From assembly GCA_947478865.1 (NCBI GenBank), contig CANJXF010000018.1:1-64000 (forward strand): a DNA stretch of 64,000 bases. The letters are read 5' to 3'. The notes beneath the pieces were generated by a model, which made no database searches, was not told the DNA's origin, and worked only from the letters and a program-made list of their open reading frames with translations. The translations under genes were made by a program, and so were the position numbers. The stretch's first letter is position 1. The number at the start of each line of letters is the position of its first letter. The stretch is from Verrucomicrobiales bacterium (GTDB lineage Bacteria > Verrucomicrobiota > Verrucomicrobiia > Limisphaerales > CANJXF01). Of this stretch, positions 16,922-46,780 are shown piece by piece.

Positions 16922-17761
16922 TCAGGCGGCCTTGCGCTGCTTTTTGGCGGCTGGTTTCGCCGGCCTCTTCGTTTTCCCGGCGCTCCGGGTTTTTTCCAGG
17001 CTCCGTTGCAGAACCGAGATTAGGTCCACGACGTTCGTCGCTTTGCCGGTCGGCCGTTTATGCGTTGGTAATTCTTTTCCGCCCGCCGCCACTTTCTCCT
17101 CGATTACCTTCATCAACCCCTGGCGATATTCGTCTTGGTATTTCGCGGGATTCCACTTGGCGGTCATTCCTTGGATCAGCGATTCCGCCATCGCCAGCTC
17201 CTTTTTCCCTGCTTCAACTTTCCTGGGCAGGTTCAACTCATGCACGTCGGCCAATTCATCGGCGAAGTGCATCAATTCCAGAACGAGCGCCCCGTCCAGC
17301 GGTTTGACCGCGGCCAGGTGTTCGCGGGTCTTGATCGTTACCTTGGCGATCCCGACCTTGCCCGAGCGTTTCAACGCTTCGTGCAACAGCACATATGCCT
17401 TGTCGCCCCCTTTTTCGGGTGCCAGGAAATACGGTTGGTCGAAAAACATGGGATCGATTTCCTCCAGCGCAACGAATTCCTTGATGTCCACGATCTGGTT
17501 GGACTGAATGTTGACCCGCTCGAAATCCTTATCGCTCATCACGACAAATTCGTCCTTCTGATACTCGAACCCTTTCACGATGTTTTCCCACGGGGCTTCC
17601 TGGCCATCCACTTCGGCCACCCTTTTGTATTGCACCGGGCTCAGATCGCTGGCGCGGAGGAGCCGAAACTTCACCTGATTGGCCGCGCGAGTTGCGGAAT
17701 AAAGCCCGACCGGAATGTTCACCAGCCCAAAACTGATTGCTCCCTTCCAAATTGCGCGCAT
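16922..17761 (-). CDS. ku: Non-homologous end-joining protein Ku
   Basis: 279 aa. The family opening is exact: MRAIWKGAISFGLVNIPVGLY. It is followed by FRLLRASDLSPVQYKRV and the ring-forming core (VNIQSNQIVDIKEFVALEEIDP, split in the middle; YFLAPEKGGDKAYVLLHEAL). The C-terminus is a Lys/Ala/Pro tail like mycobacterial and other long Ku proteins, which binds DNA and helps sliding. Bacterial Ku forms homodimers at double-strand break ends and recruits the ligase LigD. No ligD or other ligase gene is adjacent here, which is unusual but not rare. Confidence 0.95.
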   Translation of the reverse strand: MRAIWKGAISFGLVNIPVGLYSATRAANQVKFRLLRASDLSPVQYKRVAEVDGQEAPWENIVKGFEYQKDEFVVMSDKDFERVNIQSNQIVDIKEFVALEEIDPMFFDQPYFLAPEKGGDKAYVLLHEALKRSGKVGIAKVTIKTREHLAAVKPLDGALVLELMHFADELADVHELNLPRKVEAGKKELAMAESLIQGMTAKWNPAKYQDEYRQGLMKVIEEKVAAGGKELPTHKRPTGKATNVVDLISVLQRSLEKTRSAGKTKRPAKPAAKKQRKAA

Positions 17762-34151: not shown

Positions 34152-34286
34152 GGCGGTAAAACGGCGCAAGAGAATGGCACCGCCTGAGGCCAGGCGGCTT
34201 GAGTTTGAAAACTTTTCGGGAGTCACATTCGAAATTTGCGGTTCGCTCTTTTCGCTGTCGAGCAACTATTTCCCCGCTTTGCGGCC

Positions 34287-34344
34287 ATGCCCCAGCTTGC
34301 GCGCGGCGAGCATCGAGGCGAGGGCGTTGTTCGCGCCGAGGAAC
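34287..34344. repeat. Duplicated hsdR fragment
   Basis: 54 of 58 bases match 38583-38640 inside the hsdR remains. On the minus strand it encodes NNALASMLAARKLGHGR, next to an aligned NNAIASMLAARKLGHGR in hsdR. No other hsdR sequence is joined to it, so it is a displaced or second-copy fragment. Confidence 0.75.
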
Positions 34345-34493: not shown

Positions 34494-35983
34494 TTACCCC
34501 GCCTCGGCATAAACACCCGCATCGCGCTCGGGGTAGCTCTCGAAGACGTGCTCGAAGAGGGCGGAGCACTTCTGCTCGTAAAGGGGTTTGTCGTAGGCGC
34601 GGGGAAGGCCAGTGTCGAGGGTGTCCTCGATGGCGAGCTTGAGTTGGGAACGCGCGGTGGATTTCTGCCGCCAGTTGAGGACAAGCAGTTGCTTGAGCCG
34701 GGTCAGGAGTTCGCGGGCGACTTTCTTCACCTCGGCGCGCTCGGGCTCGCTCAACTCAGGTGCCGGGCGCGTGAGGATGTCGAAGATGACCAACTGTTCC
34801 TCGGTCATGTTTTCGCGGACGTGGCGTTGCTGCTCTTCGCTCAGGTTGCGGCTCAATTTCACCAACTCCTCGAACAGCTCTTCGATGTTCCGGCTGCCGG
34901 CGTTGTAGCTCTCAATCAACTCCTCGAACTTCTCGGCGAAGTCGGCGCGGGTTTTGTTCAGGTGAATCAGCTTTTCCAGTTGGGCGCGGATGGCGGCTTT
35001 CAGGACTTCGAGGTCGGTGTTCTTGTGCTTGGACTCTTTGAACTTTGCCGCGAGCGCGCCGAAATCAATCTTCGAGAGGTCCATCACCGGGGCGGGCTTG
35101 GCAGGCATGTCCACGCCTGTGATGGAGGCATCGAGCAGCTTGCTGATGTCGCCCATGACCGCCGTGATGTCCGCCGGATTGGGATTGAGCTTGGCGCGGA
35201 TGGCGTCGGCGATGGCGGTAAGCGTGGCGACACGACCAGAAAACTCCAACGCCGCCGGGTCGGGCTTCACTGCGCTGTAGAGCGTGTTGACGATGCGCTC
35301 GTGGCCTATGAACTCGCGGCGCAACGGGTCGGGTGAGATGAGCGCGTCCACGGCGTCGGCGAGTTTCTGCAAGCGTTGCATACTCCCAACGGCAAGTTGC
35401 TCGATGGCTGGGAGAATCACCTGGCGCGTGGCGCAGAAGGTCGTCGCCGCGTCCACGGCCTTCCGTAAATCCGCGACGAGCTTCTGCTTGTCCTTCACCG
35501 GGTTCTTGCCGTCCTTGCCTGCGCCGTAGATGGCCAGTGCCTTTTCCAGCGAGGCGAACACGTTCGCGTAATCCACGATCATGCCGCTGTGCTTGCCGGG
35601 GAACACGCGATTCGCCCGGGCGATGGTCTGCATCAGGGTGTGATTCCGCATCGGCTTGTCCAGATACACCGTAGAACAACTCGGCGCGTCGAAGCCCGTC
35701 AGCCACATGGCGCACAGGAACACGATTCGTAACGGGTCGTCTGAATCCTTAAACTTCTCGTCCAGCGCCTCTTCATTCATCCGCTTGCGATGCGGCACGA
35801 TGTCGAGGCCGTGCTTCTTCATTTGCTCGATCTCGTTCTGGCCGGGCGACACGATCAGCGCCATGTCGGTTGTCGTGAGCACATCCAGACGTGCGGACAA
35901 TTCAGCTTTCTTTTCCGCCGTGAGGTCGTAGCGCCCCATTTGCTTCTTGGCCACCGCAATTTCCATCGCCCCGACGCGGCGTT
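34494..35983 (-). pseudogene. hsdR: hsdR 3' part (type I restriction subunit R)
   Basis: C-terminal half of a type I restriction ATPase. Starting near 35966 the sequence MEIAVAKKQMGRYDLTAEKK leads into DMALIVSPGQNEIEQMKKHG, then the second helicase domain: LRIVFLCAMWLTGFDAPSCS (motif V region) and MQTIARANRVFPGK (motif VI). A long helical C-terminal region runs to the natural-looking end at 34494. Frames upstream of about 35983 are not homologous. It is separated from the middle of the gene by a plus-strand gene of 1.7 kb, and about 25-30 residues of the family are missing at the break, so it cannot make a complete HsdR. Confidence 0.88.
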
Positions 35984-36030
35984 GAGGAGCGGCTTGACAT
36001 GAAGCTGGATTGTTGCAAAGAGAACGTGCA

Positions 36031-37671
36031 ATGAATTCAGTTCGCTCCATGATTGTGTTCGTCGCCTTGGCCGGCTTCGTAGCGTGCCGGTCTTCTGCGG
36101 AAGCAAGCCCGCAACCCCCGCTCCAACTCGTGCTTCCGGTCGGCGACCGACCCGCCCGTCGCCTCATTGAATCCACGTTTGGCAATTATCTCGACCGCTT
36201 CTACAATGTGAAGCCCACCATTGTCGGCAGTGCCATTAAAGCGGGCAGCTACGTCGTGCTGGGAACTCCTGAAACGAATCCCTTGCTGAAGCAGCTAATC
36301 CGGGATGGCCTCAAGCTCACTTCGAAACAAATCGGCGACGAAGGTTTTCAAATCATCACTCACGAAAGCGGGCCATACCGATACGTGATCATTTACGGGA
36401 AGACCCCGCGCGCCTTGAAACACGGTTGCCAGGAACTGATCTTTTATCATTTGCGGGCGACACGGGAGGGCCTCACGGTGGACTGGCCGCTGGACTTGGT
36501 GAAGATTCCCGAGTTTCCGTACCGTGGAATTTACATGCTTCCGTGCTGGTCGGCCCATGATTCCATCGAATCATGGGAGCGGGTCCTGCGGTTTAATTCC
36601 GAGCTGACGTTGAATCGTAATTGGTTCTGGCTGGATGGTTTTCCCGTCGCCGGCCATACGGGTGAATACACCAACACCCCGCTCGCCGACGAAAAGCGCG
36701 TGCAACGCCTGATTGATCTGGTGAATGACGAGGCCATGAAGTTTTACATCGGCGGCGGTTGGATGACCTGGCATCACAAGAAGGCGGTGGGCCACGACAT
36801 CAAAAAGGGCACGGACTACTACCTGGGCTATTTGAAGACGTTCAAGCGCGTCGGCGGTTTCTACTTCGAGCCAACTGGCGAACCGTGGAACGACGGGCGC
36901 GGGGACGAGAGCAAGGCGTGGCTGGCCGAGGTCGAAGGCTTTCAAAACCTGATCCGAACCCTCCTCAAAAAAGATCCCGACCTCGAAATCGCCCTCGCGA
37001 TTGGAAGCTGGAACAACCCCGAGTATCTCCAGCGCATGGCGACCCTGGATTCCAAACACGTCTTTTGGTGGTGGTGCTGGGGCGACCCGATTCGGAACCA
37101 GGCGCTGGATCGTTTTCCAAACGTCCTGCGCTGGCACAATCAGTTCAAGCAGTCGCCGACGCCCGACGAAACGCACGGCTCGCGCGAGCCGCCCATGCCC
37201 GCCGAACGTAAACTCACCGGTCTGGCGACCAGCTATGATCCAGCGGGCGGCTTTGGCAGCCCGTGGCACAATGCTTCGCACCCGAAGTTTCTGGCCGCTG
37301 ACCTGATTTTTGGCGGCACGACCAAGCCGGAGAATTTTGATCCCCACACGCTCCCTTACTTCTACCTGCAGTACTTTTTCCGGGAACGTTGCTGGAATCT
37401 GAACCTCACGACCGGGGAATTCGAGGCACGCCTGCAACGCCGCCTATTCGACGCCGACGCACCCGCCGACGCCGGCAAACACTATGCAAATCTTTCCCGC
37501 CTCGTCCTCTGGCGTTACGACGACATGAAGCCGAAGCTAAAACCCGGCGCTGAAGAACTGGCGACCCTTCGAGCCTTCATGGATTCCACAAGCCAGCGAC
37601 CTTGGACTTCCCGAATGATGGACACCTTGCGGCACATGGAGGATGCGTTGGCGCGCTTGGAAGGAAAGTGA
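36031..37671 (+). CDS. Secreted glycoside-hydrolase-like protein inserted in hsdR
   Basis: 546 aa from the ATG at 36031. The N-terminus (MIVFVALAGFVACRSSAEA) is a signal peptide, possibly of lipoprotein type. Residues 30-145 look like the N-terminal alpha/beta domain often placed before glycosidase barrels (GH20b/GH67N-like: GSYVVLGTPETNPLLKQLI ... YGKTPRALKHGCQELIFYHL). A probable TIM-barrel follows (FPYRGIYMLPCW, LNRNWFWLDGF, GGFYFEPTGEPWNDGRGDES, FWWWCWGDP). The Glu-Pro-Trp and Asp residues are candidate active-site positions, but the family was not identified. It runs opposite to all surrounding restriction genes and has intact coding, so it seems functional. Confidence 0.7.
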   Translation: MNSVRSMIVFVALAGFVACRSSAEASPQPPLQLVLPVGDRPARRLIESTFGNYLDRFYNVKPTIVGSAIKAGSYVVLGTPETNPLLKQLIRDGLKLTSKQIGDEGFQIITHESGPYRYVIIYGKTPRALKHGCQELIFYHLRATREGLTVDWPLDLVKIPEFPYRGIYMLPCWSAHDSIESWERVLRFNSELTLNRNWFWLDGFPVAGHTGEYTNTPLADEKRVQRLIDLVNDEAMKFYIGGGWMTWHHKKAVGHDIKKGTDYYLGYLKTFKRVGGFYFEPTGEPWNDGRGDESKAWLAEVEGFQNLIRTLLKKDPDLEIALAIGSWNNPEYLQRMATLDSKHVFWWWCWGDPIRNQALDRFPNVLRWHNQFKQSPTPDETHGSREPPMPAERKLTGLATSYDPAGGFGSPWHNASHPKFLAADLIFGGTTKPENFDPHTLPYFYLQYFFRERCWNLNLTTGEFEARLQRRLFDADAPADAGKHYANLSRLVLWRYDDMKPKLKPGAEELATLRAFMDSTSQRPWTSRMMDTLRHMEDALARLEGK

Positions 37672-38191
37672 GACGGCAGGGGATTCTGCCGGGGCGGCGT
37701 TTCACACGTGGGACGCCGGGTGGGGTTCGCCTTGCCGACGAAGCCGCGCCCGAGGAAATGCCGCACGATGTCCTGCGCCACCGTTTCCAGCCGGTCGTCG
37801 CGCGTGAGGATGTGGTATTGCCGGCTCAACTCCCGTTCGAGCTTCGCTTCCTGTTCGGGGTCAAGTTCCGCCGCCTCGATGAGGTTGTAGATGTCCTCGT
37901 TCAGGTCCGGGTTCACGAGCTGCAACTCCGGCGTGCGGTTCTCGTAGAACAGCGGCACGGTCGCGCCGTCCTCGACCGATTGCTGGAAGTCGTAGATGGA
38001 GACGTAATCGCCGAACACGTCCTTGGTCCGCTCCTCGCCGGCGATGAGCGGTGTGCCGGTGAAGGCGAGGAACAGCGCCTTGGGCAACGCCGCGCGCATG
38101 TTCAGCGCCAGCGTATCGTATTGGCTGCGGTGCGCCTCGTCCGTGAGCACGATCACGTCGGGCCGGTCGCATAACACGGGCATCACGCCTT

Positions 38192-38306
38192 CGGCCGGAG
38201 CGCGGCCTTCAGGCCGCTTCACCGTGGAATCGTGCGTGGCGTTCGATAGATCAGAGACGGTCGTGCTGGCGGACATTGAAGCGGGCTGAAGCCCGCGCTC
38301 CGGCTG
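38192..38306. repeat. REPIN-like palindromic pair inside hsdR
   Basis: Two inverted arms, 38192-38220 and 38278-38306, match at 26 of 29 positions. Each arm contains its own hairpin (GCGGCCTTCAGGCCGC in the left, GCGGGCTGAAGCCCGC in the right). It interrupts HsdR between HKFQ and MPVLCDRPD; the inserted roughly 40 residues keep the frame open. This is the architecture of REPINs mobilised in trans by RAYT transposases; no RAYT is in the window. Confidence 0.8.
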
Positions 38307-38805
38307 GAACTTGTGGATCAGCGTGAACACGTAGCGATGATTCCCGCGCAGCAACTCCCGCAGATGCGCGCCGCTCTCGGCATGGCACTGTTCGCCCTCG
38401 GCTTCACTCACCGCGCCGGTGGCCTTGAAGGTCTTGGCGATCTGGTCGTCCAGCTCCACGCGGTCGGTCACGACCACGAACGTCCAGTTGCCCGCCACCT
38501 TGCGCAGCACCTTCTGCGCGAAGAACACCATCGAGAAACTCTTGCCGCTGCCCTGCGTCTGCCAGAACACACCGCCGCGACCGTGCCCCAGCTTGCGCGC
38601 GGCGAGCATTGAGGCGATGGCGTTGTTCACGCCGAGGAACTGGTGATTCTGCCCGATGATTTTCACCAGCCCGGCCTTGTGCTCCGAGAACAGCGTGAAA
38701 TTCTCCACCAGGTCGAGCAGCCGCGTCCGGTCGCACGTGCCGCGCAGCATCACCTCCAGCGCCACCCGGCGCGGCTCGTCCTCGCGCTCGATGCATTGAA
38801 CGCCA

Positions 38806-38818
38806 GTCCGGCTCGGAC
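38806..38818. repeat. Small palindrome at an hsdR frameshift
   Basis: GTCCG, GCT, CGGAC. The HsdR reading changes frame exactly here: WERFFE is in one frame and IEREDEPRR, which should follow almost at once, is in another. Confidence 0.6.
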
Positions 38819-38998
38819 CTCGAAGAACCGCTCCCAATCCGCCGTGAGCGAGCCGACGCGGCTGTCCGTGCCGTTCGAGGCGATGAGCAGCGCGTTGAAC
38901 CAAAAGAGCTGCGGAATCTCCGCCTTGTAGTGCGTCAGGTTCTCGTCGAACGCCGCGCGCGCGGGCACGCCGGGCTTCTTCAACTCGATCACCACCAG

Positions 38999-39016
38999 CC
39001 CCGACAGCAGTCGGGG
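38999..39016. repeat. 18 bp palindrome at an hsdR frameshift
   Basis: CCCCGAC AGCA GTCGGGG, a perfect 7 bp stem. It separates RPDLVGFVN from LVVIELKK, which are normally joined by about three residues, and moves the second into another frame. Confidence 0.7.
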
Positions 39017-39052
39017 TTGACGAAGCCGACCAAATCCGGCCGGCAGGGGTTC

Positions 39053-39327
39053 GGAGTCTGATTGAAAACTGCGAGTGGTTCTGTTTTCGGGGAAAAGGCC
39101 GGATGGCGAGGCGCGACGAAGAAACATACCCGCAACGGTCTGTGACCGAGGAGCAGCGAAGCCAGACGGTCTTTTGCGCGAAAACCCTCCGGGCAGCGGG
39201 TCTTTTGCCTTGGGCCGGCGTTGGCTCGGTCGGCACAGCCCGCTGCGGGGATGCTCCGGCCAAGCCGCCTTGTCCCCAGCCAAAATCCCTCGCCGCAGAA
39301 CCCCTCGCAGCTTTTCAATCAGACTCC
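39053..39327. mobile_element. 275 bp MITE-like element in hsdR
   Basis: Terminal inverted repeats: left GGAGTCTGATTGAAAA then CTGCGAG (39053-39075), right the reverse complement at 39304-39327 with one extra base. 23 of 24 positions pair. The interior has no homology to HsdR and codes for nothing recognisable. It splits SQFSVTGAL from CRPDLVGFVN, two pieces of one conserved HsdR block. No clear target duplication was found by eye. Confidence 0.8.
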
Positions 39328-39424
39328 CAAGCGCGCCGGTGACGCTGAACTGGCTGACCAGCAGGAAATCATTGTTCGCCGGCTGCTCCCAATCAATCAC
39401 CTGCACCCGGACAGTGGTCTGTCC

Positions 39425-39523
39425 TCCCTTGGTAGGGCGTGCTGTCCCCAGCGCGCCGCGATTGCCCGTGCGGCTCGCACCCTCTCCGCCTCGACCGGGG
39501 AGAGGGCCGGGGTGAGGTGTCGA
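39425..39523. repeat. 99 bp in-frame palindromic insert in hsdR
   Basis: Adds 33 codons (TPHPGPLPGRGGEG ...) between MERD and GQTTVRVQVIDWE. It contains a hairpin with 8 bp stem CCCTCTCC/GGAGAGGG (plus strand about 39480-39507) of the common CTCACCCCGGCCCTCTCCC type, followed by a GTAGGGCGTGCTGTCC block that looks like a dispersed repeat. Confidence 0.65.
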
Positions 39524-39738
39524 ATCTCTCTCCATCACGGAAACGGGAATCCCTTCTTTCAACAACCGATACACCTCGCGGTTCGCCGCTTCCAGGCTCA
39601 TAGCCGAACGGTCGCGGGTCAATTCATCCACGGCGGCGGTGATGGCCTCGGGCGGCAGGGCGGGATTCGACCGCTCCAACGCCGTAGCCGCAGACCGGGC
39701 AAAGTTGATGCGCGTGAGAATCGCGCCCCTCTCGGTCC

Positions 39739-42268
<2,530 letters not shown>

Positions 42269-42276
<8 letters not shown>

Positions 42277-43852
42277 CGTCAGAGCTTTCACTGAGGTCCA
42301 TCGGGCGGATCACGGCTTCTACGTAATCGATCTCTTCTTTTGTCAGCCCGTATTTCGTGTAAAGGTCTTTATCCGTCCACACCCGATCCCACGTCTGAAC
42401 TGGAACCCACTTGTAAGTGGAGCGGATAGCGTCTTGGGTGATCTTACGAAGGGAGACAAGAAATCGAAGGAACTTAGTGGTGTAGTAGGATTGAATGCTC
42501 CGTGCCTTCGTTTTAGAGCCTACATGAAAGAACATGAAGGAACCGGTGCAAACAGAGGGCGATGGTGCAACCCAAGGTTTGCCAAGCACCATGTCCGGCA
42601 CCATCCCGCCACCGGATCCAGCCTTAGGGACAAATACCTTCCAAGTTTCGATCAAGTGATGGTTTCTCTGAACCTGTTTAGCGGTAACGTAGCCAATGCC
42701 GCGTTTACCACGCTGCGCGTAATAAACTGGTATGTCGCCGGACCTCTGCTGTTCGCGGAAGTCTGCGAAGTTAGAAGCCCACTTGAATGGCTCAACTCCT
42801 GTGAGGATTTCGATGACTGATGCCTCTTTCTTTGAGAGAACCTTGTGAAGAATCTTTACGGCACGAAGATCACGGACGAAAACATCGAACTCGTCCAGTG
42901 TGCGAAGAGCATCCGTAGATACTCCCGCACGCGTTGTTGTCACCTTAGTCTCACCCTTATGAGCAGAGTCCCAAAGGAAATAAGATATACCGCCTTTCAC
43001 CTCGACACCGGGAAACACCTCGCTAGACACGGGAAAATCCACGAGCTCGCGCAACTTGGCATCTGCGAACATTCGCGCACGATATTCATCTAAACCGTGC
43101 CCACCAGCAAGCCAGCGGGACGGCGTTACCATGCAGACATATCGCGGTTCCAGGCGTAATGCCTGCTCTACGAATAGGTGGTAGATTGATGAGTCAAATC
43201 CACCACCACCTCCAGTCATCTGATACGGGGGATTCCCAAGAATTACGTCGAATTGCATATTTTCTCCGAATATCTCGGTCAGCCGAGTCTTGATGTTGTG
43301 CGTGTGAATGAACGCGTAAGCGTGGTTCTCAAGTCCTGCCTCACGGTCGAAGATTGCTTTTGGCGCTCCACAGAACTCACAGTTCGTGTCGCCCCATGTG
43401 TGCTCCATGCGCTGGAACCAGATATTTCCATCGTCGCTGGCGAAGCCTTTGGCAATCGAGTGTTCACCTTGGGCGTGCTTAGAGCAATAGACGCTGCGCC
43501 GTGCCAGTAGGCTAGTAAGGTGCGTGATGGCGATACCGAACACCTGCTTGGTGAGAATGTGGTTCACGCGCTTTTCCAAGTTCGGAATTTCCTTTTCCAA
43601 TCCATTGGTTAGTCGGGTGGTGATTTCGCGCAGGAACACGCCGGACTTAGTAAAGGGGTCCAGGAACTTCACCGACTTGTCCGCCCAGATGTTTGCGCCC
43701 TTGTGGTTTGCCGCCCAAGCCTCGGCCAGCGTGTCCAGCATCCGGTTGGCGAACTCCGGCGGGGTGAACACCTCGTCGTTCGAGAGGTTCGCGATGCAGG
43801 TCAGCACGTCCGGGTTGCGACCGCGCAAGGTGAAGTTGGCTTGAGTGGTCAT
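42269..43852 (-). CDS. Eco57I-like adenine-N6 DNA methyltransferase
   Basis: 527 aa. The AdoMet-binding part has EVFTPPEFANRMLDTL and motif I LDPFTKSGVFL (64-74). The catalytic motif IV is FDVILGNPPYQMTGGGGG (NPPY at 207-210), the signature of gamma/Eco57I-type N6-adenine methylases. Cys pairs (NCEFCGAP) suggest a zinc ribbon between them. The C-terminal half is likely the target-recognition domain (ASNFADFREQQRSGDIPVYY). Its ATG overlaps the TGA of the upstream small methylase by four bases and its stop overlaps the helicase start, so the three genes form one operon. Confidence 0.88.
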
Positions 43853-44493
43853 ACGATAGTCTCCGGCGCATGGGCTGCGATTTCACTCACGGTCATGGGC
43901 GGGTAATCAGGTTTGGTGGGTGTGAAAATCTCGTGCTTGCCGCAGCGTGCGAAAAGCGGGTCCGCACTGTAGGCCGCCGATTGGGTGAGGTCGTCCAACC
44001 GAAAGTCGCGGCGCTGGAACCTGCCTTTTCCCAAAGGGCCCCACTCGGCAAAGGTAATCGGCCGGTCATCATGGGTGCGCATGGTGCGGGCGTCTCCATG
44101 AACGAGGTTTTGCGACAACACATAGAACGCGGCGCGATACAAGTCGTCCGCAGGAGTGAGCTGCAAATACTCGGCGAAGATTTCCAGCAGATTGGCGCGG
44201 CAGTCGTCGATGTTGTCGGCCAGCAGTTCGATGCCGTAAATGCACATCAGCGCGAGAAGCGCGTAATACCGTCGCTCGAAATCGGACTTCCCATATTTGA
44301 GTTCCACGGCGGCGAGCTTGCGCCGGAGAATCTGCACGAGGAAGTTGCCGTCCCCGCACGCCGTCTCCAGAAAGCGCGAATCAATACGCTCGGTCTCGCC
44401 CTTCACGAGGTCGAGCATGGCCTCGACCATCCACGCGGGAGTGAAAACCTCCCCGTGGTCGGCGACTCGTTGTTTGGATTTTACGAGGCTCAT
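43849..44493 (-). CDS. Small AdoMet-binding DNA methylase subunit
   Basis: 214 aa from the ATG at 44493 (MSLVKSKQRVADHGEVFTPA). It has the N6-methylase entry HGEVFTPAWMVEAMLDLV and motif I ETACGDGNFLVQIL, then helices and a C-terminal segment rich in Asp and Arg. No NPPY or other motif IV is present, so it lacks the catalytic pocket. It may be a second AdoMet-binding subunit or an accessory to the next methylase, with whose start it overlaps by four bases. The open frame upstream of 44493 belongs to the truncated hsdM. Confidence 0.78.
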   Translation of the reverse strand: MSLVKSKQRVADHGEVFTPAWMVEAMLDLVKGETERIDSRFLETACGDGNFLVQILRRKLAAVELKYGKSDFERRYYALLALMCIYGIELLADNIDDCRANLLEIFAEYLQLTPADDLYRAAFYVLSQNLVHGDARTMRTHDDRPITFAEWGPLGKGRFQRRDFRLDDLTQSAAYSADPLFARCGKHEIFTPTKPDYPPMTVSEIAAHAPETIV

Positions 44494-44564
44494 AAGGAAA
44501 CTCGGTCGGAGCACAGTCCATCGCCGCGCGCGCGGAAGCGAAGAACGCGAATTGCAGTGTCCAG
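44494..44564. other. Junction between truncated hsdM and the methylase-helicase module
   Basis: 71 bases that resemble neither hsdM nor the module. The outer ends carry loosely inverted sequences (GGAGCACAGTCC at 44509-44520, GCAGTGTCC near 44554-44562). It may be a small repeat that served as the recombination point, and it must hold the module promoter. Confidence 0.35.
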
Positions 44565-44631
44565 GGCGTTGACGTTGAACGGCGGGTTGGCGAGGACGAA
44601 GTCGAAGCGGCCCGTGGCGTCGTGCGGGTCT

Positions 44632-45135
44632 GGGCAATGTCGAATGACGAATTTCGAGTGGCGAACTTGGGGAAGTCCGAAACGCAAATTGCGAATGGGG
44701 AAGGAATCAGTCATTTCCACCTCTCGCGGTTTTCTTGGACGCAACGGTGATTGCCACGAGTTGGTCTGCCTCGTCCTCAAGCCGGTCCAGTTCGCGCAAG
44801 CACTGCGGTTCAAATTTCACGGTGCCAAGTCGCGAAATATCCCGGAGCATTTCGAGCCAGAAACCGGATTCGTCCGCTTCCTCTTCAACCGTGCCGAGTT
44901 TCGAGATGAAGTCGGCCTTCGATTTCGCGCGGCAGGCGGACCGGTAGTTTGCCGCCGTGGAACTCGACGACCGGATGACTTGGCCGATGGCATGGCGCGT
45001 TTCGAGTGTTTGCGGCAGCCCGGAGCAGAGCTTGATTACGTCGAGCGCAAACTTCTTCGTTCGCTTCTTCAGTTCTTCACTCATGGAGACTCCATTCGTC
45101 ATTCGCACTTCGCAGTTCGCAGTTCGCAATTGCCC
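44632..45135 (-). mobile_element. Four-helix-bundle (23S-IVS type) element inserted in hsdM
   Basis: 504 bp. It begins GGGCAAT at 44632 and ends ATTGCCC at 45135, and both ends share an inverted GAATGACGAAT (44642-44652; 45094-45104 on the other strand). The ends are built of seven-base units of the form CGAANTG: CGAACTG, CGAACTG, CGAAGTG, CGAATGA on one side and CGAATGA, CGAATTT, CGAGTGG, CGAACTT on the other. The single gene inside encodes a four-helix-bundle protein. HsdM homology flanks it on both sides, so the insertion limits are well defined. No transposase is encoded. Confidence 0.75.
44707..45084 (-). CDS. Four helix bundle protein (23S rRNA IVS family)
   Basis: 125 aa from the ATG at 45084, which has GGAG five bases upstream; an upstream in-frame ATG lies within the heptad repeats of the element. 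The sequence KRTKKFALDVIKLCSGLPQT, IRSSSSTAANYRSACRAKSK and ADFISKLGTVEEEADESGFW matches the four-helix bundle family first seen in intervening sequences of 23S rRNA genes and related to the Avd protein of diversity-generating retroelements. It probably forms a pentameric basic ring that binds nucleic acid. It is the only gene of the element in hsdM, and no reverse transcriptase is nearby. Confidence 0.85.
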   Translation of the reverse strand: MSEELKKRTKKFALDVIKLCSGLPQTLETRHAIGQVIRSSSSTAANYRSACRAKSKADFISKLGTVEEEADESGFWLEMLRDISRLGTVKFEPQCLRELDRLEDEADQLVAITVASKKTARGGND

Positions 45136-45254
45136 GCGCCGCCGTGTTTGATTTCGCCTTCGAGGCCGTGGACGGCGAGGTTCAGGCGGCAGAGGCGGCC
45201 GGTTTCGTCGGTTTTCTCGACGCCGTGGATGGACAACTCGCGAGTTGGGTCACC

Positions 45255-45310
45255 GGAATAGTCCTTCGGCCTATTCCCCCCGGCAGATTGGCCAGCGGCA
45301 GCTTGCCGCT
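45255..45310. repeat. Double-hairpin insert in hsdM
   Basis: Two hairpins in tandem: GGAATAG (45255-45261) with CTATTCC (45271-45277), and AGCGGCA (45294-45300) with TGCCGCT (45304-45310). They fall in an extra stretch of about 23 residues (QAAAGQSAGG ... YSGDPTR) absent from other HsdM proteins at this point; the frame is kept. Confidence 0.65.
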
Positions 45311-46223
45311 TGTGCTCGGAGACGAAGCGCGCGGAGGAGACGAACATGCCGCCGGAACCGCACGCAGGGTCGAGGATGCGCCCGTGGTAGGGCTCGATGA
45401 CTTCGGTGAGGAGGCGGACGATGCTGCTGGGGGTGTAGAACTCGCCGCCGCCCTGGCCCTCGCTCATGGCGAACTCGCCGAGGAAGTATTCGTAGATGCG
45501 CCCGAAGGCGTCGTAGTCCAGCGAGGCAGGAATCTCGGAGACTTTCTTGAGCAGTTCCTTGAGGAGGGTGCTGGTGAAGAGGTTGTAGGTCTTGGGCAAG
45601 ACGCCGGCGAGTTGCGGGTTGTGCTTCTCGATGTCGCGCATGGCGGCATTGACCTTCGCGCCGATGTTCTCGGCTTCGGGGCGGTTGAGCAGGTAATCGA
45701 ACCGCGCCTCGGCGGGCAGATACAGGATGCCCTCCGCGTGGTAGGCTTTCGGGTCTTCCACGCGGGACTCGCGCCGGGACGATGCACCGGCTTTTTCCAG
45801 CATCGCGCGCTGGGCGGCGAAGCGGACTTCGGCGAAGCGCAGGAAGATGAGGCCGAGGACGGGCGCGGAATATTCCTGGGACTTGAGGCCCGAGTTGGCG
45901 CGGAACTGGTCAGCGGCGTCCCAGAGACGCTTTTCCAGCGCGGCGTTGTCGTGGTCTTTTTCCGATGGGGCAATCCAGATCATGATGTTGCGCCGGACTG
46001 TAGGGAAACCCTGATATTGAGCAACTGAAAAGGTTTTTCTCGGGCGGGGTCACGCGATTTCACGGCTGGGCGGCCTTCGGGGCGCGGCGGCGATGGCGTT
46101 CTGGCCGCGGTTTGGAAGAGCGCTGGTTTGATCGCGGCTTCCTGGCTGGCGCCGGAAACCAAACGCGTTGGGCCATGTTTACAAAACTTGTTTGCGCGTT
46201 TGTTTGAGATTAGGTTTTCCGCC

Positions 46224-46454
46224 ATGAACGCAGAACTGCTCAAGCGAATCACGATTGAACCGGGCCAATGTGGCGGGCGCCCCTGCATTCGCGGAATGCG
46301 AATGCGCGTGACGGATGTGTTGCAGCTTCTCAGTGCAGGCGCTTCCTACGAGGAAATACTCGAAGATTATCCCGACCTGCAACGCGATGATATTCTGGCC
46401 GCCCTGGAATACGCCGCACACCAAACCGACCATGTCGTTCTCCAAACGACGTGA
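46224..46454 (+). CDS. DUF433 antitoxin-like protein
   Basis: 76 aa from the ATG at 46224 (MNAELLKRITIEPGQCGGRP). The DUF433 pattern is clear: a short N-terminal strand, GGRPCIRGMRMRVTDVLQLL and YEEILEDYPDLQRDDILAAL, a winged-helix-like DNA-binding fold. It is followed with a four-base overlap (GTGA) by a DUF5615 gene; the pair is a recognised toxin-antitoxin-like arrangement in which this is the antitoxin and probable autorepressor. The upstream 240 bases separate it from the divergent hsdM. Confidence 0.88.
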   Translation: MNAELLKRITIEPGQCGGRPCIRGMRMRVTDVLQLLSAGASYEEILEDYPDLQRDDILAALEYAAHQTDHVVLQTT

Positions 46455-46780
46455 AGTTCCTGGTAGATCAACAATTGCCGCCCGCGCTCGCTCGCTATCT
46501 CCAGAGCGAAGGACACGATGCGTCTCATGTCCGTGAACTGGGATTAAACGAAGCCGAAGACCAGGTGATCTGGCGTCTGGCCCTTGCCAACCAGCAAGTT
46601 GTAATCAGCAAAGACGAAGATTTTTGGTACAGGGCGATTGCTCCTGGAAGCACGGGCAGATTGGTCTGGGTGCGGATTGGAAATTGTCGCAGACAGAATT
46701 TGATTGAAGCATTCAGGAATAGACTTGCGTCCATAGTGGCCGCATTTGAAACCGGCAGCCGAATTGTAGAACTTCGTTAA
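46451..46780 (+). CDS. DUF5615 PIN-like toxin
   Basis: 109 aa, GTG start at 46451 overlapping the DUF433 stop. The PIN-like acidic residues are visible: MKFLVDQQLPPALARYL (first Asp), the Glu pair in GLNEAEDQVIW and SKDEDFW (Asp-Glu-Asp). The fold belongs to the PIN/Mut7-C-like nucleases, so it is a presumed RNase toxin neutralised by the upstream protein. ruvX starts nine bases downstream and could share the transcript. Confidence 0.85.
   Translation: MKFLVDQQLPPALARYLQSEGHDASHVRELGLNEAEDQVIWRLALANQQVVISKDEDFWYRAIAPGSTGRLVWVRIGNCRRQNLIEAFRNRLASIVAAFETGSRIVELR

What the first reader, a model, noticed from the sequence alone, without database searches (positions are those of the whole stretch)
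34494..45983. A type I R-M locus whose middle was replaced by a different R-M-like module
On the minus strand hsdM is cut off after its NPPF motif (44565) and hsdR is recognisable from just behind the helicase stop (39739) onward. Between them, exactly where the rest of hsdM, all of hsdS and the start of hsdR should be, lies a complete three-gene operon of another type (two methylase proteins plus GIY-YIG helicase) with overlapping genes. The hsd remains are broken while the inserted module is intact, which suggests a takeover of one restriction locus by another, possibly by recombination at similar sequences.
Basis: partly seen in the sequence, partly recalled or inferred. Interest (0 to 1): 0.85.

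Follow-up and report, generated by a model that had tools for sequence, protein, structure and literature searches.

The report
Restriction system spliced into another's locus
In this bacterium a complete DNA-cutting defence system of one kind sits inside the broken remains of a different one, and a few other genomes show similar takeovers, so such loci look like repeated landing sites for defence genes.

Summary
Confirmed. A type I R-M locus has lost HsdM after residue ~292 of 535, all of HsdS, and HsdR residues 1 to ~53. In the gap, on the same strand, lies an intact overlapping three-gene operon. The lost parts are not elsewhere in the held genome at high identity. In seven genomes of the order, HsdM and HsdR relatives (76-92%) share one contig, so the pieces come from one ancestral kind of locus. 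The insert is a DrdVI-type split R-M system (M1, M2, GIY-YIG/SF2 protein): a known kind, mobile across phyla. Its recognition region differs from DrdVI's, so its target is unknown. Takeover recurs: in G384 a Bpu10I-type R-M system fills the middle of the same hsd lineage, and in a planctomycete MAG a DrdVI-type module lies between hsdR and hsdM pieces. Intact relatives carry defence genes between hsdS and hsdR, and 8 of 14 loci keep extra hsdR 5' stubs. I infer cargo capture anchored in hsdR with an illegitimate left join that here reached hsdM. That mechanism is not shown; stepwise decay fits too. New variant of a known kind.

The parts
45138..45983 (-). hsdM 5' part, HsdM residues 1-265
   Evidence: PF12161 and PF02384; 74-79% to intact HsdM of L117
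44631..45137 (-). element with a four-helix-bundle ORF (PF05635) inside hsdM
   Evidence: absent at this point in relatives; 12-bp perfect inverted match between its end regions
44558..44630 (-). hsdM piece with NPPFNVNA, last hsdM sequence
   Evidence: 78-97% nt to seven listed relatives, all ending at 44558
44494..44557 (-). left junction; first 13 bases match a small insertion in G312 hsdM at 12 of 13
43849..44493 (-). M1, methyltransferase subunit, 214 aa, motif I, no NPPY
   Evidence: 67% to the pDrdVI homologue; family alignment
42269..43852 (-). M2, Eco57I-type methyltransferase subunit with NPPY and variable recognition region, 527 aa
   Evidence: PF07669
39739..42276 (-). R protein: T5orf172 GIY-YIG domain plus SF2 helicase, 845 aa
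   Evidence: PF10544, PF04851; 78% to the pDrdVI homologue
39684..39738 (-). right junction; hsdR homology begins between 39704 and 39684
39329..39684 (-). hsdR residues ~57-160
   Evidence: HSDR_N
38298..39050 (-). hsdR residues ~163-403 with frame changes
37727..38171 (-). hsdR residues ~405-554
35972..37726 (+). 1.75-kb insert in hsdR with an opposite-strand 553-aa ORF (36010-37671)
   Evidence: no other copy in the held genome
34497..35971 (-). hsdR residues ~600-1077
   Evidence: T1RH-like_C and T1R_D3-like; up to 89% to relatives
34281..34344 (-). stray hsdR piece, residues ~288-311

Best explanation
A resident type I R-M locus was taken over by a mobile DrdVI-type split R-M operon. Shown: order, strand and breakpoints; that relatives of both hsd pieces occur together in loci that in several genomes are complete hsdM-hsdS-cargo-hsdR; that the insert is a full set of M1, M2 and R genes of a horizontally mobile family. 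Inferred: M1 and M2 form one N6-adenine methyltransferase whose M2 reads the target; the R protein uses its SF2 motor and GIY-YIG nuclease on unmethylated DNA; the module is the working system and the type I enzyme is dead. Inferred mechanism: in this order the hsdS-hsdR interval collects defence genes by recombination anchored in hsdR on the right with a non-homologous left join, often leaving an hsdR 5' stub. Here the left join, or a later deletion, reached hsdM and removed HsdM 3', HsdS and the hsdR start, leaving the operon behind the 5' end of hsdM.
For: Sharp breakpoints against intact relatives. Complete loci in the order. HsdM and HsdR relatives on one contig in seven genomes. Missing parts not elsewhere in the held genome. 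The three genes match pDrdVI genes in order and length. Bpu10I-type system in the middle of the same hsd lineage in G384. DrdVI-type module between hsdR and hsdM pieces in L219. Defence cargo, hsdR 5' stubs in 8 of 14 loci against 2 of 62 internal-segment tests, 24 of 29 hsdR starts within 50 bp of an upstream ORF stop. hsdR C-terminal remnant has dN/dS like intact copies, so the loss looks recent.
Against: No donor-like locus with a DrdVI-type module next to an intact hsdR was seen in 95 downstream flanks or in the hsd loci searched with the module. The window has no hsdR 5' stub and its hsdR start is missing, so the homologous right join is not visible. Most modules are not in hsd genes: few of 77 upstream and 95 downstream flanks match. 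No same-family genome shows the site before the event. R-M activity is untested.
Confidence: 0.75

Rival explanations
1. Stepwise decay: the operon first inserted as ordinary cargo beside or between hsd genes of an intact locus; separate deletions later trimmed hsdM 3', hsdS and the hsdR start up to the operon's edges while the operon was kept by selection.
For: Defence cargo normally sits between hsdS and hsdR in relatives. L128 and L147 show deletions joining hsdM and hsdR sequence with no long cargo between. hsdR carries several other lesions.
Against: Both losses stop within about 65 bp of the operon; G384 and L219 show similar tight joins, which separate deletions explain less simply.
Confidence: 0.35
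2. Assembly or binning artefact: reads of two loci were joined in a metagenome-type assembly.
For: The genome is in 114 contigs; coverage could not be inspected.
Against: The lost hsd parts are not elsewhere in the held genome; both flanks are one hsd lineage in the right order and strand; similar arrangements occur in other genomes.
Confidence: 0.05
3. The hsd pieces still work together with the module as one hybrid system.
For: Same strand and tight spacing; the hsdR C-terminal piece still shows low dN/dS.
Against: hsdR has no start, frame changes and a 1.75-kb insert; hsdM lacks its C-terminal 45% and is interrupted by an element; module relatives occur without hsd genes.
Confidence: 0.03

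Closest known systems
DrdVI split R-M system of Deinococcus wulumuqiensis plasmid pDrdVI (PMC6430315, whole text read)
   Same: Three genes in the same order; identity 67% M1, 55% M2, 78% R
   Different: M2 recognition region only 25-33% identical in its two most variable 100-column blocks, so the target is probably not GCAGCC; plasmid-borne, not in hsd remains
Defence genes embedded between hsdS and hsdR, e.g. DarTG2 in E. coli (PMC12255303, passages read)
   Same: Cargo in the same interval; that paper calls the site a potential recombination hotspot
   Different: There the type I system stays complete; here it is destroyed
Insertion with long target duplication of R-M genes in Helicobacter (Nobusato 2000; seen as a reference and as described in PMC1643837, passages)
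   Same: hsdR 5' stubs in relatives are duplicated target ends
   Different: The window itself shows loss of target, not duplication
Btr190I-type replacement of hsdS and neighbouring ORFs in Bibersteinia (PMC4996451, passages read)
   Same: Middle of a type I locus exchanged between conserved M and R
   Different: There another hsdS came in and the system methylates; here an unrelated R-M operon

Membership tests
DrdVI-type split R-M system | Adjacent M1, M2 and R genes in this order | tested here: met
DrdVI-type split R-M system | M1 with motif I but no NPPY; M2 with NPPY and variable recognition region | tested here: met
   24 M1 and 18 M2 aligned; one M2 (L155) has NPPD; NPPY absence in M1 read by eye
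DrdVI-type split R-M system | R protein with GIY-YIG and SF2 motor domains | tested here: met
   PF10544 E 1.6e-7, PF04851 E 1.7e-6
DrdVI-type split R-M system | Adenine methylation by M1 plus M2, and restriction | not testable with these tools
   needs expression
DrdVI-type split R-M system | Same target GCAGCC | tested here: inconclusive
   recognition region too different to predict
Functional type I R-M system | Complete hsdM, hsdS and hsdR | tested here: not met
Insertion with long target duplication | Duplicated target sequence on both sides of the insert | tested here: not met
   no hsd duplicate flanks the module in the window; met for hsdR stubs in 8 of 14 relatives' loci
Transposon-like unit | Terminal repeats | tested here: not met
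   no shared repeat over 9 bp between the 300-bp end regions
Transposon-like unit | Linked recombinase moving with the unit | not tested
   none seen between hsdM and hsdR pieces in the ORF list; no systematic search across loci

The most novel reading that the evidence does not exclude
Type I loci of this order act as growing capture arrays. Incoming defence or R-M genes arrive linked to an hsdR start, recombine in hsdR on one side and join illegitimately on the other, leaving a ladder of hsdR 5' stubs that records each capture. When the illegitimate end overshoots into hsdM, the newcomer, at times itself a type II R-M system (DrdVI-type here, Bpu10I-type in G384), replaces its host system and inherits its promoter end. 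The window encodes Ku (16922-17761), which could supply the end-joining.
Probability: 0.4. Interest if true: 0.75.

Novelty: new variant of a known kind. Interest (0 to 1): 0.6.

Why it matters
It gives a case, with base-level breakpoints, of one restriction system replacing another, plus further examples and a readable trail (hsdR stubs) of how defence genes pile up inside type I loci. If the capture model holds, the order of defence acquisitions could be read from stub arrays, and embedded defence genes could be found by looking for hsdR starts.

Tried and rejected
Dropped ideas. (1) That L120 and L123 share the window's hsdM breakpoint: my first impression, noted as a hypothesis, was wrong; full-length HsdM puts their ends at residues 434 and 396. 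(2) That M1 is a truncated gene: the short form without NPPY is the family norm in 24 sequences. (3) Carrying over the DrdVI target: the recognition region is too different. (4) Structure models were of middling confidence (mean pLDDT 73 for M1, 67 for M2). M1 had no PDB match at E 0.001 or better. M2 matched adenine methyltransferases such as BrxX, CamA and M.TaqI. (5) MhoVII (PMC12898733, passages) is an unrelated two-methylase system. (6) A paper search on four-helix-bundle insertions gave nothing useful in its listing. (7) Furuta et al. 2010 is not held. (8) Weaker HsdM-like pieces before M1 in L228 and L211 (E 4.2 and 10) were not counted.

Samples and dropped rows. hsdR stubs: of 21 loci with a testable hsdR start I counted the 14 chosen by HsdR C-terminal or HsdM similarity and left out 7 fetched because of their N-terminal hits; over all 21 the figure is 12. 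Controls: 2 of 62 internal-segment tests matched, both in L122. Cargo proteins were picked by me from the ORF lists (10 per call, 9 in common), so they are not a random sample; L120's cargo is not defence-like. A2 holds 18 of the 25 M2 sequences first listed: L164 has a stop; L034 and L035 are plasmid records; L049, L156, L193 and L219 were left out without being checked. A3 leaves out L034, L049 and L050 of the 24 in A1.
Full report
What is there. On the minus strand hsdM starts at 45983 and reads to about 45138 (HsdM_N and N6_Mtase). A 507-bp element coding for a four-helix-bundle protein (PF05635, TIGR02436) interrupts it. hsdM continues for 73 bp through its NPPF motif and stops matching relatives at 44558. 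Then come M1 (44493-43849), M2 (43852-42269) and a GIY-YIG/SF2 protein (42276-39739), overlapping by 4 and 8 bp. hsdR returns at 39704-39684, residue 51-57 of 1078, and runs to 34497. It is broken by a 278-bp and a 126-bp insert, frame changes and a 1.75-kb insert with an opposite-strand gene.

The pieces belong together. Of 245 genomes of the order, 64 match the HsdR C-terminal region at E 1e-30 or better and 32 match the HsdM N-terminal region at E 1e-60 or better. In seven genomes (G111, G289, G345, G363, G384, G412, G421) both lie on one contig, at 79-92% for HsdM and 76-89% for HsdR. Of 40 sequences compared with the HsdM, HsdS and HsdR of L117 (window included), 14 carry hsdM and hsdR sequence on one contig: 9 also match HsdS and 5 do not (window, L120, L123, L128, L147). 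Loci with all three genes covered include L117, L116, L122, L130 and L141. In L117 the stretch that corresponds to the window's gap is about 6.2 kb; here 4.9 kb stands in its place. Other HsdM copies in the window's genome are only 28-40% identical; other HsdR matches are distant or very short. The hsdR C-terminal remnant has dN/dS of 0.07-0.17 against nine relatives' copies, like those copies among themselves (0.06-0.17), which I read as a recent loss.

What the insert is. The pDrdVI plasmid of Deinococcus wulumuqiensis has the same three genes in the same order, at 67% (M1), 55% (M2) and 78% (R) identity. Its methylome paper lists M1-2.DrdVI as an m6A, type IIG entry for GCAGCC with genes cloned in E. 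coli (PMC6430315, whole text). DrdVI is called a fused translocase and nuclease in PMC4996451, where its relative has a GIY-YIG domain (passages), and the family is called split methylase/RM genes in PMC10113651 (passage). The 24 aligned M1 proteins share motif I and show no NPPY by eye. The 18 aligned M2 proteins share GNPP and a KSG in place of the usual GSG (the usual motif is recalled). The two most variable 100-column blocks of M2 are 25% and 33% identical to DrdVI, so the target is unknown. Activity was not tested.

How mobile it is. The R protein was found in 20 of 286 genomes of the class and in 79 plasmid records, the best eight at 71-84%. In the 76 of 98 loci with an M2 alignment over 400 columns, the median identity to the window is 86% for R and 54% for M2, so recognition changes faster than restriction. 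By eye there is no common flank, and the 300-bp end regions share no repeat over 9 bp.

Takeover is recurrent. In G384 (L123) the hsd lineage shows HsdM 1-396, then an HNH-domain protein, a DNA methylase and a Bpu10I-type endonuclease (PF09549, E 1.8e-68), then HsdR from residue 145, tightly abutting. In G412 (L120) a GH25/M23 protein, not a defence gene by its families, lies between HsdM 1-434 and HsdR from residue 52. In a planctomycete MAG (L219) a DrdVI-type module lies 106 bp after an HsdR match (E 9e-4) and 7 bp before HsdM 236-520 (E 7e-16), all on one strand. Of 77 upstream flanks, a short HsdM start is significant in L198 (E 4e-4); in L187 and L160 it is visible by eye but not significant (E 3.7 and 13). 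Of 95 downstream flanks, L152 has a weak HsdR match (E 0.065). Flanks 5 kb away (53 and 63) gave nothing better than E 3 apart from the window's own hsdR. So most modules are not in hsd genes; the association is a minority.

How such loci grow. Among cargo proteins that I picked from the hsdS-hsdR intervals (10 per scan, 9 in common) are GajA and GajB (E 3e-234, 2e-229), Mrr and PD-(D/E)XK nucleases, Fic, SLFN/AlbA, an AbiEii-type protein and AAA ATPases; one had no Pfam match and two no PADLOC match. Extra hsdR 5' pieces lie between such genes: in 8 of 14 loci, against 2 of 62 internal-segment tests (Fisher p 6e-6; loci and segments are not fully independent). Of 29 hsdR starts, full or stub, 24 lie within 50 bp of an upstream ORF stop, median gap 10 bp. 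For the DrdVI-type R gene, 5' stubs occur in 6 of 79 loci and in none of three control segments. I infer that cargo comes linked to an R-gene start, joined by homology there and illegitimately at the other end. This resembles insertion with long target duplication, described as frequent with R-M genes in Helicobacter (PMC1643837, passages); the hsdS-hsdR interval has been called a potential recombination hotspot (PMC12255303, passages). The window would be a case where the left join reached hsdM. A Ku protein in the window (PF02735) could supply end-joining; that is only a suggestion.

Against. No donor with a module beside an intact hsdR was seen. The window has no stub, its hsdR start is missing, no same-family genome is held, and stepwise decay fits nearly as well. 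The takeover itself I hold with high confidence; the one-step mechanism at even odds or less.

Verdict. Real and more general than first thought. The module type, defence cargo in type I loci and target-duplicating insertion are each known. In the listings and passages I saw I met no description of a type I locus whose middle was replaced by a DrdVI-type or Bpu10I-type system, nor of hsdR 5' stub ladders. That library lacks most subscription papers. New variant of a known kind.

Noticed in passing
window 44631-45137: Four-helix-bundle (PF05635) element inside hsdM with a 12-bp perfect inverted match between its end regions; the held genome has one other PF05635 gene (C47).
   Followed up: partly
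window 35972-37726: Opposite-strand 553-aa ORF inside hsdR with no Pfam or NCBIfam match; single copy in the held genome.
   Followed up: partly
window 38172-38297; L118, L122, L131 near HsdR residue 400: Inserts at a similar point of hsdR in several genomes, some in frame so that the long ORF stays open; possibly palindromic repeat elements.
   Followed up: no
window 44545-44557 and L147 (G312) hsdM: 12 of 13 bases after the hsdM break match a small insertion at the same site in another genome, a possible shared element or hotspot.
   Followed up: partly
L039, L159, L160, L177, L189, L218: 5' stubs of the DrdVI-type R gene 0.9-2.7 kb upstream of the full gene.
   Followed up: partly
loci L152-L231: DrdVI-type R protein is 83-92% identical across records named for many phyla, unusually high for a restriction subunit.
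   Followed up: partly
window 46128-46780: DUF433 and DUF5615 gene pair next to the hsdM start, overlapping at 46451-46454; toxin-antitoxin-like by recall.
   Followed up: partly
window 16922-17761: Ku gene (PF02735).
   Followed up: partly
window 34281-34344: Stray 64-bp piece of hsdR past its end, evidence of an earlier rearrangement.
   Followed up: no
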